A stretch of 64,000 bases of DNA, taken from positions 620,001 through 684,000 of the forward strand of contig BCHU01000013.1 in assembly GCA_001599715.1 (NCBI GenBank). Direction: 5' to 3'. A program made the translations under genes and the position numbers. This DNA is from Phaeotremella fagi. Its lineage: Eukaryota; Basidiomycota; Tremellomycetes; Tremellales; Phaeotremellaceae. Below the pieces are notes generated by a model. That model had not been told where the DNA came from and did not search any database. It saw only the letters and a list, made by a program, of their open reading frames with translations. Below are positions 23,260-31,813 of this stretch, one piece after another (position 1 is the stretch's first letter; every line of letters begins with the position of its first letter).

Positions 23260-24999
23260 TTACTGTTCCCAATTCTCCCATGAATCTTGAGATGAGATAT
23301 CGACACCTTCATGATCATGATGATGAGGTGGGATCAAGAGTTTAGTTAGAACCTGTAATCCATCAGTTTTGGTTTTCGTCCAACCTGATAACTTACATGA
23401 GTTGCACCGTTTCGAGCTGGAACATCGATAACTTCAACAAGTTGATCATTAACTTTGATAGTGGTTTTCACGGCGCCTATGAAGGTTTTCAGTAAAAGTC
23501 CACAACAGTAACCAAATCTAGACACACCTTCAACAGGTAAAACTTTTGTTTTATCAATAACAACATGTAAAGTAGCGTTAGGTAAACCAGTACCAATATC
23601 CAACTCCTTATGGAAACTAGGATCATCACCCAAATTGAAATATTCAATACCCTCAATTTGATCGTTAAATCCAAACGCTCCTTTCTCGCCCTTCTCAGTA
23701 TAAAGCAACTCAGATAACAAAAGGGTGTGAGGAATGTAATGGTACGCCAGTAACTTTCTCAAAACACGCTCACCGAAAGGTGAGAACAAGTAGAATTTGA
23801 GTTTAGGTGGTAACAAACCAAAAGCTACGTTGTTGGGTGCGAAAATGGTTGATAAACCTTCACCGTGGAATTTGGGTTTACCAGGTGAAGAAGCGTTACG
23901 ATCGTATGACCATTGGACGAAATGACTAGCATGAACTTTTTGGATCGACGAGGTCAAAGTCGAGAACGTATCTGGGAACAAGAACAGTTCGTCCAGAATC
24001 GATCCAGGTGGGATGAGAGGATGATTGATGGTGTGTACATAACCGTTTCTCGCTTTTTTATCAGCGTTAACGACCTTAGCGTAGAAATTGAGTTTCAGAG
24101 CTATCATCTGCAGTTAGACATTTTCATGATATGGTGAATAAAAAACGTACCAGGTGGAATGAAGGTTTTGGTAACTTTGACTCGTCGATGTAATCCTCCA
24201 TAACTACCATCACCAGCTTTCAAAGCCGTAGCGAAAGTTGAATTTTGAGCCAGTTCAGCACCAGTGTAAGCCTTGGTGATACCGTGGTATTGAAGAATCT
24301 TGCCCGCAATCTTCTTGAAGGTTTCTTTACGTTTTTTCTTCTTGTCGTCATCGTCGTCGTCGCCGCCATCTTTCATGAGGGATGGTTTTTGATCGAGGAT
24401 GGAGACGAATGTTGAAAGAGAGGGATTAGCGAGGAGCTGGATGATTAGAAGGGATCAGTAACTATGCAATCATTTGGGAAGACGACTGACCTCTTTGATA
24501 TCCTCTTCGTCATCGCCGTGTTTGTGATGTGGGGGAGTAAGAGCTTCATTGTTAGGAGCCTATCGAGGTTAGTCAGAGTGCCTAAGATAATGTATAAAGG
24601 GGACATACGAAGAAAGTGATCTGTAAATCCTTATCATCAAGATATTTGATAGCCTTCTCTTCAAACTAAATCGAAAGCGAAGTAAGTACAATCTCCCAGA
24701 CTCTAAAAACATGAAGGAAGACCTACATTGAGGACTTTAACAAGCTTAGAGAAAGAATCGTCGTTCTGTAATTGTTGCCAAATAGTCAGTTCCTCGTCAC
24801 CGTTAACGTTGACGTGAACGTTATCGATGATTTCCTGAGCAGTTGACCAAGAAAATGAACCGATTGAATCGATGAATTTAGATTGAATCTTGGTCCATTG
24901 GGATAAAGACAATTCTGGGATCGTTTGGGATTTGGATTTGATGGTGGTGGGGACGGCTAGAGCTAGAGGGACGAGGGGAAGAAGATGGAGTAATCTCAT
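23260..24999 (-). CDS. Secreted fasciclin (FAS1) domain protein
   Basis: Six exons (24999-24727, 24665-24609, 24559-24491, 24436-24151, 24100-23397, 23352-23260) give 493 residues. A signal peptide is clear at residues 1-16 (LLHLLPLVPLALA). FAS1 motifs are seen twice: ITFFAPNNEAL with a GAEL/TFATALK segment, then TIFAPNNVAFGLLPPKL followed by LLAYHYIPH. The second repeat keeps the FAPxNxAF signature and the YHxx motif of FAS1 H1/H2. FAS1 proteins are cell-surface or matrix adhesion factors. There is no clear GPI-anchor tail; the C terminus is acidic, ending WENWEQ. The acceptor for exon 5 (24101) was chosen to hold the frame. Confidence 0.87.
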
Positions 25000-25503: not shown

Positions 25504-28500
25504 TTAAGTGTAACACCAACCACCCAACTGACTGGCCCAATTCTCAAGTCCAAGTGTCCCCGCCTCCCTCAACCCAGATCTCTTAGGAACGACCAAAACC
25601 TCCTCATCACTCGATAACTTCAAATCAACCTCAGAAAGAGATTGGGTAGTTGATAAAATACCTAAACCTGGTCCACCGAGTGTCGTTAAATGAGGTTCGA
25701 AACCGTGATTCCTTAGGATCGATAATAGATTTTCAAGAGATTCATCTGGGAATTCTGTGAGGTGTTATCGTTAATGACAATCAGATTTGCGTTTGACTTG
25801 ACTTACCATCTGGAATCAAGGTTACTGCACATCCACCACCACCTGCACCAGTTAATTTTGTAGCTAGTCCAAATGGTTGTTCAGAGGTTGCCGCAACGAT
25901 CATTTCCAATGCTGGATGTGACACTCCAAGGGTAACCAAGTACCCGTGATTCTCGCGAATCAACGTCTAACGATTCATCAACCCAAACCCCAATCAAAAA
26001 ACTAAACACTTACCTCGAGACGAACAATCAACTGTTCCCTGTCCATCACCAAACCACCATCAAGGAGTTTGATCGATTCTTCACTGATCTTCTGAATAGA
26101 TTCCAAGATCGGATCTACCACACGTGGTTCTGCCAATTTCTTGGCTGAGACACCGGCAACTAACGATTTAGTGTCTCTGGGAACGAGAGTGTTGGTAAGA
26201 AGTAATCTGACTGAGGTGAATCTGTGGTGCAAGGGGAAATGATCAGTAACGATCACCCAAACAAACTCCAACTTACCCATGTAATCCCTCTAAACCGCCT
26301 TTCTTACCACCGACACTTCTGGTGAAAGCAACTCCACCACCCCTAACACTGACAGCGTTATCTATCCCACTCGGATTCCCATGTAAAACTTTCTCCGACA
26401 AGAAAGCCCATCCATCCACTAAATCAGTAAAGTCTTTCGACAATTTTGATTCTGATGATGGTGCCGAAGGTAATGTGATATGCTTATGAGCTAGTAACAG
26501 TGCCGATGCTAGACATGTCGAATAGGCAGCTGAGGAACCTAAACCAGCTGAAATTGGGAGATTGGAAGAAACTGTCAACGTGACACTTGGTCTAAAGTAG
26601 CGTGTCAATATCGTCCGTTTTAAACGAATCCACTTACGTGTCTAAAGCGTTCCCACCCATTATCATGGTAAGATACAAAAACGCTACTCCGGTAGCAACA
26701 GCGTTCTTCCCTAACGATCCGTTATCACCGATAACGAATTTCTCAATCCTAACCAATAGTTCAGGTATCAATTCCTTATCAGCGATGATTCTCGGTTGAT
26801 CAACCAATTCCCAAGGTAAATCGTCAATCAACCATTCCATTTCATAATTCAAATCCGGAGCTTCGATACCGATTCGACCGTCCATTCGAGGTGACAAGAC
26901 TCCGAAACATCGTAGATTAACCGAAGTGGCTATAGCGGTCTGCAAAAGAAAACAATCGTAAGAAAATAGATACAACTTTAATAGGATGCATTCAAAATGT
27001 AATGTTAAGATATGGATATGGTTATGGATATGAGTGATGGAAAGATTAGGCAGAATTGTCACGTACCACACCGTGAACTACTGCGTGTTCACCGAAAAGT
27101 ATAACCTTTCCAGGAGCGGAGACGACGATATCACCGTCGATAGTTTTCTTTTCGATGTCGGGTGTCGCATCACCAAGACCTAAACTGGCTTTAACACCTT
27201 GTACGAGGGAATCGATACCGGTTGTAGAGCCAGGTCGACGATAACCTTTAGCTCTTTCGAGGATCCAAAGTTCCTTGTCGGTTTCGTACAAAGCTTCAGC
27301 TTCTTTCGTTAACAATGGTGAATAAGTTAGATCTGGTGTGATAGCTCCGGATGAGATTAAAGCGTGTTCGAGATCATCGATCAAGTCTCTTGGATCTTCG
27401 ATACCGACGCAAAGTCGAATTAGATTTTCTGGTAAACCACGAGCTTCTCTAACTGCGGCAGAGATTGATGCGTGACTACACAAATTAGCTGAGAATCTGA
27501 TCTACAAGTGAGACAACCTACGACATCAAACATGGCATACTGATCAAACTGTTGACAGCACCGAAAGAAACCGAAATACCCCATAATCTGGCACCACCGA
27601 CGATCTTCTCACTGAGGAATTTATCACCTGTTTCGAAAGATAAAACAGCACCTGAACCAGTAGCTTGTTTGATATGAACATCTCTTAAAGGATGAGATTT
27701 AAGTCCAGGGTAATGAACCGCGAAACCAAGAGCGTCGAGATACGAAGCAACAATTCCAGCGGTACCCATCTGTCTGTCCATTCTAATCGACAGTGTTTTC
27801 AAACCTCTCATGAGAAGGAATGAATCGAATGGCGCTAAACCAGATCCGACTGAGTTGATGAGGAAAGCGATTTGTTTGACGATCTCTGGATCTGAGACTG
27901 CGATGATACCAGCCATAAGATCGTGATGACCTGAGAGGTATTTCGTTCCGGAATCATAAACGACATCTGCTCCCAGTTCAAGAGGCTTTTGAAGATAAGG
28001 AGACATCATTGTATTGTCCACAACGATGATAGCACCTGGTGCGGACGCTTTGACAGTTGCGGAGATAAGACTGATATCGGCGATTTTTAAGAGTGGGTTG
28101 GTGGGTGATTCGAGTAGCACCATTTTGACTCTACATTGTCAGTGCTGAGCCTGAATTCCAACTCACTTGTTACCTTTACCAAGATAGGGAAGGATATCCT
28201 CAACTCTAGTCGTATCTACATGTTTGACATCCACTCCACCATGACTTCCGATATAGGTCAATAATCGATTGGTACCACCATATAAATCATCACCAGCAAG
28301 AACCGTATCACCAGGTTTCAAAAGTCTAAGAATCATATCCAAACAAGTCATACCAGTAGACACAGCGAAGGCGTTGGTTGATCCATAAAGTCTAGCCAAG
28401 TGGGTTTCTGTTTTTATCAGTAGGCTTTCCCCCAGAGCACCAAAGAAAACATACCTAAACCACCTCTAGTAGGATTCCCACTTCTAGTGTAATCATAGGC

Positions 28501-28710
28501 ACCATCCATACCTTTAAACGTAGCAGTTTGATAAATTGGAGTGGATGATGCACCATATTGATCCTTTGTATCGACTGCAGCGCAGAGTGTTGAGAATCTC
28601 CATTTGGCTTGACGAGCGGCTTTTTGATCGAAATCTGATGAAGCTTTGGAGGGCAAGGAGTAGACTGATGTCGCAAGGGATGAGTCCCCAGGTGTTGATG
28701 GGGTTGTCAT
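25504..28710 (-). CDS. Cystathionine beta-lyase / mevalonate kinase fusion
   Basis: Nine exons (28710-28455, 28407-28167, 28130-27522, 27475-27067, 26939-26638, 26591-26277, 26221-26014, 25966-25807, 25754-25504) hold one frame and give 916 residues. Residues 1-412 are a complete cystathionine beta-lyase: YDYTRSGNPTR, GDDLYGGTNRLLTYIG, VLLESPTNPLL, and the PLP lysine K229 in SGTKYLSGHHD. Residues about 484-916 are a complete mevalonate kinase: SAPGKVILFGEHAVVHG, the second GHMP motif GLGSSAA, catalytic-type Asp in GIDNAVS, and KLTGAGGGGCAV. The 70-residue linker is coded in the same exon as both domain ends (27475-27067) and holds no Met, so the kinase has no start codon of its own. The lyase makes homocysteine from cystathionine in methionine synthesis; the kinase makes 5-phosphomevalonate for sterols. 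Joint function is inferred. Confidence 0.92.
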
Positions 28711-29056
28711 TGTTGTTAAGTGTTAAGATGATAGATTTAGGAAGGAGATTGAAATTTATTTATTTATTTATTTATTGTGGTTGGTGCTTATCGAACGAGT
28801 CGAAGATCAAATTGCGCCATAGGATTATGTTTACGTAAGATTTTGGCTTTACTTCACTTGATCAGAATCAAGTATCAGATTCAGCCCATATCGAGTACAC
28901 ATTTGACTATGCAACACGAATATGTTGAGAGTGACCATTACCATCCTTTCACCACGTCGTGCTGTTTTGTTGAAATAGCGAAAAAGCATCAAAAGAATGA
29001 AAAAGAATCCAGCGCTGGAAGTGGCGGAGGAGTTTCAAGCAGTGCTACATCAACGT
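28711..29056. promoter_or_regulatory. Promoter of the fusion gene
   Basis: A 346-base gap between the fusion gene start and the esterase stop. It includes a (TTTA)n run at about 28754-28776, a likely nucleosome-poor element 45-65 bases upstream of the ATG. Confidence 0.5.
28754..28776. repeat. (TTTA)n microsatellite
   Basis: Five to six TTTA units in a row, directly upstream of the fusion gene. Such A/T runs often exclude nucleosomes in fungal promoters. Confidence 0.8.
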
Positions 29057-30164
29057 CTACAACTCTGTATGAACACCCTGCGGTAAAACATGAGAACTAA
29101 AGAAATCCAATAAAAACTCCCCAGTAAAATTGAAATCAGTAGTTGCGTTTGGTTTAGCGACAGAATCCAATCCATCAACCGAAGGCCAAGCATGACCTAA
29201 ATTATCGATACTCAGAGCCCTAATTTCTTCCTTCCCATTCGACCAAATTTCCAAGGTAGTATGATTAAAAGGATAAACCACTTGGTCTGGCGCAGGTAAG
29301 CCCTCAATTCCATGATTATCATCACAACCATTCCGTTTCGCCCACTTAGCCCTCCAAATTCTGACATCAGGTTCAGGACCGAAACTACCTTCTTCAACTG
29401 TTCTCCCGTAAAACGGGGTGATGGGGTCGACGACCCCATGGCAATGGAAAATAGGGATTGGTCTGGATGGTTTGCAGCCTCCGAAAGCGTGGGTTCCGGG
29501 GTAGAGGGCTGGTGAAACTGGTGCGAACGCTGCGAAGAGTTTTGAGGTATCTCCTCGACAGGCAAGTAAGGCTGTGAATCCTCCTCCGTTGGATTTACCA
29601 CAGGCGTAGTACCTGTTTATATCTGTGTTGTAGCTATTTGAAACGTCTTTCAAGATATCTTTGACGAATTGGATCTTTACTCCAATCAGTACACTGATAA
29701 GATGAAGGCCTTTATCACACCTACATCGTCAACGGTTTGATTACCGTATGGAGCACCTTGCCATATCCTAGTCATGTTCCAATCAGTGTTGTTGACACCT
29801 TGGGGATAAGCAGTCAAATAAGGTAAACCATTGATTTTATAACCAGGAGTTGAAAGTTGAGTGATCCTCTGTTGTTTCAGTGAGGTCCCACCAGCTATAT
29901 CAGGTCAACAAACACATCATCAACATGGTATCACCTACCTCCATGAAAACTAAGTACTAAAGGATGCGAGACTGATTCATTGTATTCTTCGGGGACGTTT
30001 AGTAGGTATTCCCTTCCTGATGGGAGTTGACGATGGATCTGGCCCTTCAGCGGGGTGCTATTGATGGATATCTCTAAAGGTTTTTGAGCAGGTTGATCGA
30101 GGCCATGGACGATAGCTACCGATAGAAGTAAGAAAGATGATATCCTTCCTATCATTTTGGACAT
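29057..30164 (-). CDS. Secreted feruloyl/acetylxylan-type esterase
   Basis: Three exons (30164-29939, 29894-29725, 29674-29057) give 337 residues. A signal peptide is seen (MIGRISSFLLLSVAIVHG). The alpha/beta-hydrolase signs are HGAGGT (oxyanion turn), GKSNGGG with nucleophile S160, Asp in GVVDPITPFYG, and His in LGHAWP. This set fits the LpqC/PHB-depolymerase-like esterases of CE1, which remove ferulate or acetyl from plant polysaccharides. Exact substrate is not readable. The start at 30164 (MSKMIGR) is preferred over an upstream in-frame non-ATG frame. It is divergent from an RNase III-like gene. Confidence 0.85.
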
Positions 30165-30547
30165 GGTTTTGGATGTTGAATGGTGAGTTGCAGAAAGCCT
30201 TTGACGGCTCAATCCGATATGGTGGCAATTGGACCAGAACTAATCTACTAAGATCGAATTAATACCCATCAAAAAGTAGAGTACAAATCAAAAAATCACA
30301 TATAATAGGAGATCAGGTTATCAGTATCCTAGAACACTCTCTCCCTCCATAGTCTGCTTTGTAAAGAGTTGAAGCGGTTCTGAAGAAAGAAAAAGATTAA
30401 GTCCTTAAGTGGGGGGAGACAATAACGCTGCTTTCCCCGCATGATTTGTTTTGATTGATCTATGGCTTTTTGAGACCTCATCACTCAATATCGCATTACT
30501 TATATCTGTATTTACCAACCTCCTCTTCTGTAGAGGACTTCATCAAA
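30165..30547. promoter_or_regulatory. Divergent promoter
   Basis: 383 bases between the esterase gene (-) and the RNase III-like gene (+). No coding frame of note. Confidence 0.45.
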
Positions 30548-31813
30548 ATGGAAGATCCATCTTCTTCCTCGTCCTCATCTCGAGCAAGCTCTCTCTCACG
30601 TCCAACTAATTTACGTTTCCCTTTACCTCCAATTCCAAAACAGTCATCAAATCTACCCAACATCTCATCCAATGGTCTCAATCCCAACAAGAGAAAATTA
30701 TCTGAAGAGTATGACTCCAAGATCAGAAGTAATTCAACATCATCTACCACAATCAAGATCGAAGAAGACGACTTTGATCCCCCAAAACCGAAAGCTCCGA
30801 TAGCCATCCTCCCACTCCCACTCCCATCGAAACGACTCAAGAAGAAACCAACGTCGAAAGCGGTTCTGATTCCAGTCGAACAACTACCGGTCTTTGCTCT
30901 CCCACCACTACCTGTTATTGATGATCCCATTTTACTCAAACAAGTATTCACACATGACAGTTTATTCGAAAAAGTTAAAGGTCAATTCGAAGATCCGATC
31001 GACAATCCTGCTCAGCATTATGAGAAACTTGAACATGTTGGAGATAGTATTTTAGGGATGGTCGTTACGACTTGGCTTCATGAGATGCAACCTAGATTAA
31101 CGATTGGAACTGCGACGGTGAGTCATTACGAAGTAGTCTTTACTAATTGAACCCCAGTAGAAACTCAAATCACATCTAGTTTCAAACGCTACTCTCTCCC
31201 ATTTATCAGGTCTATACAACCTCCCTCAAAGACTTACAGGAGATCCACAACTCTTACCAGTTCTTCGTGCTCAAACCGATGTCCGAGCAGCTCTGATGGA
31301 AGCTTACATCGCTGCGTTATATTTCTCCTACCCTGCCGAAGAACGACGTACCAAAGCGTTCACAGCTGTTGACATCTGGTTAAGAGAGATGTACGAACCT
31401 CTTTACGATTTTTTCTACGAATACATGAAAAACGAATATCTACAACATCACAACGCAACAGGTGCATCTGACGGTGTCATCCTATCTGAACCCGAATTGT
31501 TACGTATCGATAACGCAGCTGTCGGTATGGCACCTCTCGTTCATTTATTCGCTACGACCAAGAACAGAACCATCTCCTGGGAAGATGAAAGATTTGAGAC
31601 TAATGTTGGGATATTGTGGAAGATGAGGTTGTTGATTGACGGGATCGAAATGGGGGAAGCTACTAGAGCTGTTAAAAAGACTGCTAAAAATGTTGCGGCT
31701 TGGTATGCGGCTCAAAAATTGGGTTTAGCTGTGAGTCTTTGTTTCCATTGAAAGATGTTGACTGATAAACTGTGATCCAGACAAATGATGTAGACCAACC
31801 GTCGTTGTATTGA
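30548..31813 (+). CDS. RNase III-like protein, catalytic Asp missing
   Basis: Three exons (30548-31117, 31161-31730, 31781-31813) give 390 residues. After a Ser/Pro-rich basic N terminus comes an RNase III domain: FTHDSL, then YEKLEHVGDSILG, the counterpart of the family signature LEFLGDAVL, with the Glu and Asp kept. The later motif, normally AD-x-x-EA-x-I, reads AALMEAYIAAL: Glu is kept but the metal-binding Asp is Ala. The C terminus (SWEDERFETNVGILWKMRLL, then KKTAKNVAAWYAAQKLG) fits a double-stranded RNA-binding domain. The order fits the Rnt1/Pac1 class of rRNA and snRNA processing enzymes, but the lost Asp suggests weak or no cleavage. The start (TCAAAATGG) has good context. Confidence 0.78.

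What the first reader, a model, noticed from the sequence alone, without database searches (positions are those of the whole stretch)
25504..28710. In-frame fusion of cystathionine beta-lyase and mevalonate kinase
Seen: nine exons keep one frame over 916 codons, and a single exon (27475-27067) codes for both the lyase C terminus and the first kinase motif with no stop between. There is no Met in the roughly 70-residue linker, so the kinase cannot start by itself there. Known: the two enzymes serve methionine and sterol synthesis and are separate in yeast. Inference: a bifunctional protein or a polyprotein cleaved later, which would tie homocysteine and mevalonate flux at a fixed ratio. I cannot recall this fusion being described.
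Basis: partly seen in the sequence, partly recalled or inferred. Interest (0 to 1): 0.9.

Follow-up and report, generated by a model that had tools for sequence, protein, structure and literature searches.

The report
Known two-enzyme fusion of basidiomycete fungi
One fungal gene really does encode two unrelated enzymes, one for making methionine and one for making sterols, but this joint gene was described in 2012 and is found widely among the mushroom, smut, rust and yeast-like relatives of this fungus.

Summary
The minus-strand gene 28710-25504 has nine exons, eight GT-AG introns and one 916-codon frame. Its N-terminal half passes the curated cut-off for cystathionine beta-lyase (CBL) and its C-terminal half that for mevalonate kinase (MVK). 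The junction lies inside exon 27475-27067, with no Met between residues 368 and 524. The other GHMP-kinase matches in the same genome are other enzymes, so no second MVK was found. The fusion was reported twice in 2012: "metC-MVK" in 12 basidiomycetes (PMC3342255) and STR3 orthologues with a C-terminal MVK domain (PMC3468542); PMC4129116 and PMC3720577 repeat it. Here named fused relatives span all three basidiomycete subphyla, the MVK halves of 26 form one clade (100/98), and the active-site residues checked in both halves are kept in 179-180 of 180 proteins. It is most likely a bifunctional enzyme: two working domains on one chain joined by a partly disordered tether. Why they are joined remains unknown.

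The parts
25504..28710 (-). whole coding span of the CBL-MVK fusion gene, 9 exons, 916 aa
   Evidence: exon joining, frame, splice sites
27352..28590 (-). cystathionine beta-lyase part, residues 41-410 (exons 1-4 with introns between)
   Evidence: TIGR01329 517.9 bits against a cut-off of 487.5; best solved relative 1ibj, Arabidopsis CBL
27941..27943 (-). codon of Lys229, the PLP lysine by alignment (the lysine's role is recalled)
   Evidence: alignment with 1ibj; K in 180 of 180 rows
27136..27351 (-). linker, residues 411-482: conserved GA(I/V) at its start, a proximal helical part, then a probably disordered tether
   Evidence: conservation; AlphaFold pLDDT of relative P0004 (67% identical over residues 300-700), block means 90-95 for residues 411-450 and 53-61 for 451-480
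27067..27475 (-). exon 4, which encodes lyase C terminus, linker and first kinase motif without a stop
27070..27114 (-). first mevalonate kinase motif PGKVILFGEHAVVHG, residues 490-504
   Evidence: alignment with human MVK 2r3v
25624..27135 (-). mevalonate kinase part, residues 483-877 (exons 4-9 with introns between)
   Evidence: TIGR00549 193.4 bits against a cut-off of 163.05; 2r3v and 1kvk

Best explanation
This is the basidiomycete counterpart of yeast Str3 (cystathionine beta-lyase) and Erg12 (mevalonate kinase) joined in one gene. It is translated as one chain of about 916 residues. The N-terminal PLP-dependent lyase cleaves cystathionine to homocysteine and the C-terminal GHMP kinase phosphorylates mevalonate. 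A short conserved extension of the lyase is followed by a probably disordered tether, so each domain can form its own oligomer. The fusion arose once before the living subphyla of Basidiomycota split and has been inherited vertically, probably because it is now the cell's only copy of both enzymes. Shown: gene structure, domain identity, kept active-site residues, no other MVK found in the genome, one clade in the sampled tree. Inferred: both activities, no cleavage, free tether, oligomers, timing of origin. Unknown: any selective benefit of the joining.
For: One 916-codon frame with clean splice sites. Both halves pass curated cut-offs. At the positions checked, 180 of 180 rows keep R76, Y128, D204, K229, S360 and R389 in the lyase and K492, E498, H499, S625, S626, E672 and S680 in the kinase; Y74, H676 and D683 are kept in 179 of 180. 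The other GHMP matches in the genome are best matched by thrB, mevDPdecarb, ERG8 and galactokinase models, and TIGR00549 and TIGR01329 score highest at this gene. Relatives of about 900 aa occur in named Tremellomycetes, Agaricomycetes, Dacrymycetes, Ustilaginomycotina and Pucciniomycotina (taxonomy recalled). 26 fused MVK halves form one side of a branch against 24 stand-alone MVKs (100/98; 100% of 200 bootstrap trees). The predicted structure of relative P0004 has two folded domains with a low-confidence stretch between, matching 1ibj and 2r3v. Prior reports: PMC3342255, PMC3468542.
Against: I saw no enzyme assay and no protein size for any fused protein, and no RNA-seq for this genome. In the six-frame genome search neither TIGR00549 nor TIGR01329 reached its cut-off anywhere, this gene included, because genes match exon by exon, so the test for a second copy rests on weaker exon matches. 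The linker is poorly conserved (median identity 0.21 against 0.69 for the lyase and 0.50 for the kinase), which would also suit a cleavage site. The model has pLDDT under 50 at residues 35-78 and 351-361 of the lyase part and pTM 0.55. The literature names two exceptions, Laccaria bicolor (PMC3342255) and Postia placenta (PMC3468542), which I did not re-examine.
Confidence: 0.86

Rival explanations
1. Polyprotein: one chain is made and then cut in the disordered tether, so that lyase and kinase work as separate proteins.
For: The tether around residues 451-480 has low predicted confidence, is poorly conserved and varies in length (40-111 residues for the 411-488 stretch).
Against: No search for protease sites was run, but the column-by-column listing shows no stretch of kept residues in the tether; besides the proximal GA(I/V), R449 is the one well-kept residue there (173 of 180). 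Disorder alone is usual for tethers.
Confidence: 0.08
2. Two products at RNA level: alternative promoters or polyadenylation around exon 4 and the 127-nt intron 4 give a lyase-only and a kinase-only message.
For: Intron 4 is the longest intron. 72 of 180 rows have a Met in the linker.
Against: In this gene there is no Met between residues 368 and 524, so a kinase-only product would lack its first motif. The apparent stand-alone kinases that I read do not look like intact separate enzymes: P0158 (Phaffia), P0121, P0124 and P0125 lack the first motif, and P0130 starts inside the lyase end.
Confidence: 0.04
3. One half is a catalytically dead passenger kept for folding or regulation.
For: Nothing found.
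Against: The active-site residues checked in both halves are kept in 179-180 of 180 rows, no other MVK was found, and the other PLP-family genes score below this one with the CBL model.
Confidence: 0.02

Closest known systems
metC-MVK fusion of Basidiomycota (Liu et al. 2012, PMC3342255; section 10 and passages read)
   Same: Same domain order, similar length (about 886 aa on average there, 916 here); there the only MVK homologue and the best hit for metC, as found here.
   Different: A different species; nothing of substance. Whether this gene has the paper's 16-aa insert was not tested.
Basidiomycete STR3 orthologues with a C-terminal mevalonate kinase domain (PMC3468542; passages read)
   Same: Same fusion; about 450 extra C-terminal residues similar to MVK; no stand-alone MVK found in basidiomycetes there.
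   Different: That paper names Postia placenta as an exception; the gene it deletes is the unfused STR3 of the ascomycete Magnaporthe oryzae.
Arabidopsis cystathionine beta-lyase (PDB 1ibj)
   Same: Best solved relative by sequence of residues 38-407 (E 1.4e-109); same PLP-lysine region and substrate-site residues.
   Different: Stand-alone enzyme (464-residue chain).
Human and rat mevalonate kinase (PDB 2r3v, 1kvk)
   Same: Best solved relatives by sequence of the kinase part (E 8.5e-69 and 5.2e-68); catalytic Lys, Ser, Glu and Asp positions kept.
   Different: Stand-alone enzymes of about 395 residues.

Membership tests
Basidiomycete CBL-MVK (metC-MVK) fusion | N-terminal CBL and C-terminal MVK in one open frame | tested here: met
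Basidiomycete CBL-MVK (metC-MVK) fusion | No other mevalonate kinase gene in the genome | tested here: met
   six-frame search of a 22.6 Mb assembly, exon by exon, so a diverged or missing copy is not excluded
Basidiomycete CBL-MVK (metC-MVK) fusion | Host is a basidiomycete | tested here: met
   Kinase half groups with a Kwoniella and a Cryptococcus row (91/93); best fused relatives are Kwoniella and Cryptococcus, 68% over residues 300-700
Basidiomycete CBL-MVK (metC-MVK) fusion | Single transcript and single polypeptide | not testable with these tools
   No RNA or protein data for this genome; a fused unigene is reported in Pleurocybella porrigens mycelia (PMC3720577, passages)
Cystathionine beta-lyase (TIGR01329) | Score over curated cut-off, PLP lysine and substrate-site residues present | tested here: met
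   517.9 against 487.5 bits; K229, R76, R389 kept in 180 and Y74 in 179 of 180 rows
Cystathionine beta-lyase (TIGR01329) | Cleaves cystathionine to homocysteine | not testable with these tools
   needs an assay or complementation
Mevalonate kinase (TIGR00549) | Score over curated cut-off and catalytic Lys/Ser/Glu/Asp present | tested here: met
   193.4 against 163.05 bits for the kinase half; K492, S626, E672 kept in 180 and D683 in 179 of 180 rows
Mevalonate kinase (TIGR00549) | Phosphorylates mevalonate with ATP | not testable with these tools
   needs an assay or complementation

The most novel reading that the evidence does not exclude
The joining is functional: in Basidiomycota the shared gene and chain tie methionine and sterol synthesis together, so that sterol control also sets lyase supply. 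PMC9810662 (passages) reports a mevalonate kinase gene, g3941, as an SREBP target that rises when SREBP is overexpressed in Ganoderma lingzhi. That paper does not mention cystathionine. If g3941 is the fused gene, as expected from G. lucidum where the fused gene is the only MVK homologue but not checked here, the sterol regulator also drives a methionine enzyme.
Probability: 0.15. Interest if true: 0.55.

Novelty: already known. Interest (0 to 1): 0.15.

Why it matters
As a report of a fusion it adds one more species to a published pattern. The open point is why basidiomycetes have kept two unrelated enzymes of essential pathways joined, apparently since before their subphyla split. The kept catalytic residues, and the lack of an intact named stand-alone basidiomycete copy among the hits listed, make a clean split-gene test worthwhile. 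It also matters for annotation: many of the relatives are named for the lyase alone, which hides the mevalonate kinase. PMC7396576 notes that mevalonate kinase was the only U. maydis pathway enzyme not predicted in KEGG (passages); that the naming is the cause is my guess.

Tried and rejected
A gene-model artefact (two genes merged by wrong splicing) was rejected, because the same fused order occurs in the relatives listed. A stand-alone basidiomycete MVK was sought with the kinase half alone (best 120 of 7778 hits listed). The named stand-alone hits that I saw were Mucoromycota, Ascomycota, other non-basidiomycete fungi and one animal, except Phaffia P0158: its 315 residues match an inner part of the fused Phaffia protein P0034, differ from it at the C-terminal end and lack the first kinase motif. 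Unnamed metagenome hits cannot be assigned to organisms; P0121, P0124 and P0125 lack the first motif and P0130 begins in the lyase end. I did not read the other short unnamed hits. The idea that the missing linker Met enforces the fusion was rejected as a general rule: 72 of 180 rows have one. The X. dendrorhous proteome paper (PMC3224108, passages) was looked at for the size of the MVK spot; the passages give none. Passages of PMC7396576, PMC8058980, PMC4393869 and PMC13412983 gave nothing on the fusion. Paper searches for functional work on it showed none in their listings; one search listed 20 of 27 papers and one search listed 20 of 108, and subscription journals are mostly not held. One search translated a stretch in the wrong frame and was not used. 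Laccaria bicolor and Postia placenta, the published exceptions, were not examined. The fold search was run in the PDB library only.

Full report
What is there. On the minus strand the gene runs from ATG at 28710 to the stop at 25504. Nine exons joined at GT-AG borders give 2751 nt, 916 codons and a stop, with introns of 36-127 nt. Pfam finds Cys_Met_Meta_PP at residues 48-408 (397.5 bits) and GHMP kinase N and C domains at 605-691 (32.3) and 776-838 (25.8). The curated equivalog models name the halves: TIGR01329 cystathionine beta-lyase, 517.9 bits against a cut-off of 487.5, and TIGR00549 mevalonate kinase, 193.4 against 163.05 (kinase half given alone). The best solved relatives by sequence are Arabidopsis cystathionine beta-lyase 1ibj and human and rat mevalonate kinases 2r3v and 1kvk.

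Is it the cell's only copy? The own genome (22.6 Mb, 24 contigs) was searched in six frames, exon by exon. GHMP-domain and TIGR00549 matches outside this gene lie at four places. Their exon translations match homoserine kinase (TIGR00191, 196.4 bits, over its cut-off), diphosphomevalonate decarboxylase (TIGR01240, 186.1, over its cut-off), phosphomevalonate kinase (TIGR01219, 162.7, partial, under its cut-off) and galactokinase (TIGR00131, 84.9, partial, under its cut-off) best. So no second mevalonate kinase was found, within the limits of an exon-wise search in which no place, this gene included, reached the TIGR00549 or TIGR01329 cut-off. The CBL model scores 375 bits in one piece of this gene and at most 102 in any other place listed. 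The other PLP-family places look like cystathionine gamma-synthase or gamma-lyase and O-acetylhomoserine sulfhydrylase relatives (partial exons, so these labels are approximate). A weak match on C3 at 454550 was not followed.

Relatives. Searching with residues 300-700 of the fusion gave 517 hits, of which the best 120 are listed; all 120 listed carry PF01053, and P0003 is the only one I saw without a precomputed GHMP domain. A second search from a Pucciniomycotina member (P0064, residues 360-600) gave 1113 hits, best 120 listed, adding Microbotryomycetes, Mixia and rusts (Puccinia, Melampsora, Phakopsora). The two lists hold 198 different proteins. Six of them, first met and all under 850 aa, were left out by my range of ids; of the other 192, 13 were dropped as shorter than 850 aa or holding X. 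With the query, 180 rows were aligned. The lyase part has median identity 0.69 to the query, the kinase part 0.50 and the linker 0.21. The active-site positions tested in both halves (roles recalled from the Arabidopsis lyase and mammalian kinases; positions mapped from the alignments) are kept in 179 or 180 of 180 rows. The literal string SAPGK is present in 178 of 180. That is the pattern of two enzymes both under selection.

Linker. The stretch equivalent to residues 411-488 is 40-111 residues long. It begins with a conserved GA(I/V) (A413 in 180 of 180) and has one well-kept arginine, R449 (173 of 180). At residues 420-446 the query and the first 20 rows, by their names Tremellales and Trichosporonales, have 26-30 residues; the other 159 rows have a median of 5 and a maximum of 45, 129 of them having 1-6. 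AlphaFold on the Kwoniella protein P0004 (67% identical to the query over residues 300-700; 74 rows, mean pLDDT 82.8, pTM 0.55) gives high confidence to residues 411-450, including two short helices, then low confidence to 451-480 and again a folded kinase; most of the first 78 residues and 351-361 of the lyase part are also of low confidence. I read this as a lyase with a small extra helical piece and a loose tether; the low pTM means that the relative placing of the domains is not known.

History. In a tree of 26 kinase halves from fused proteins (query plus 25 of the 192, chosen by hand for breadth) and 24 stand-alone kinases (chosen by hand from the 120 rows), the fused ones are one side of a branch (100/98; 100% of 200 bootstrap trees). 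Inside it the rusts, the other Pucciniomycotina, the Ustilaginomycotina and the Agaricomycotina each form a group (drawn from a midpoint root, and the two Pucciniomycotina groups are not each other's nearest kin there). A single origin in the stem of Basidiomycota and vertical descent is the simplest reading. In the kinase-half search the only named basidiomycete stand-alone protein that I saw among the 120 listed is a Phaffia fragment that lacks the first motif.

What is known. PMC3342255 (section 10 and passages) describes the fusion as metC-MVK in 12 basidiomycetes, not in L. bicolor, and notes that it is the only MVK homologue there. PMC3468542 (passages) reports it in all basidiomycetes examined except Postia placenta and finds no stand-alone MVK in them. 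PMC4129116 and PMC3720577 (passages) repeat it in Lignosus and in a Pleurocybella transcriptome. Two records in the protein database already bear the name 'cystathionine beta-lyase/mevalonate kinase' (P0044 and P0117). I saw no functional study of it in the listings of the held library (searches; two of these listings were capped).

Verdict. The interpretation as a bifunctional enzyme is likely. The fusion is already known and widespread in the phylum, so interest is low. The unanswered question is the benefit of the joining.

Noticed in passing
about 23346-24999 (-): The gene just downstream of the fusion, read on the same strand, has a fasciclin domain in its last long open frame (PF02469, 46.3 bits) and what looks by eye like a signal peptide at its presumed start; its exons were not joined.
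   Followed up: partly
about 29057-30239 (-): The gene just upstream on the same strand looks by eye like a secreted esterase or depolymerase; the 223-aa piece tested matches no Pfam family.
   Followed up: partly
30455-31150 (+): A divergent open frame whose end resembles the start of an RNase III domain by eye (HVGDSIL); no Pfam match on this piece alone.
   Followed up: partly
28754-28776: A short run of AAAT repeats just upstream of the start codon of the fusion gene, seen by eye.
   Followed up: no
residues 420-446 of the fusion (exon 4, about 27324-27244): The query and the 20 nearest rows (Tremellales and Trichosporonales by name) have 26-30 residues here, mostly ending like WILERAKG, where 129 of the other 159 rows have 1-6 residues.
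   Followed up: partly
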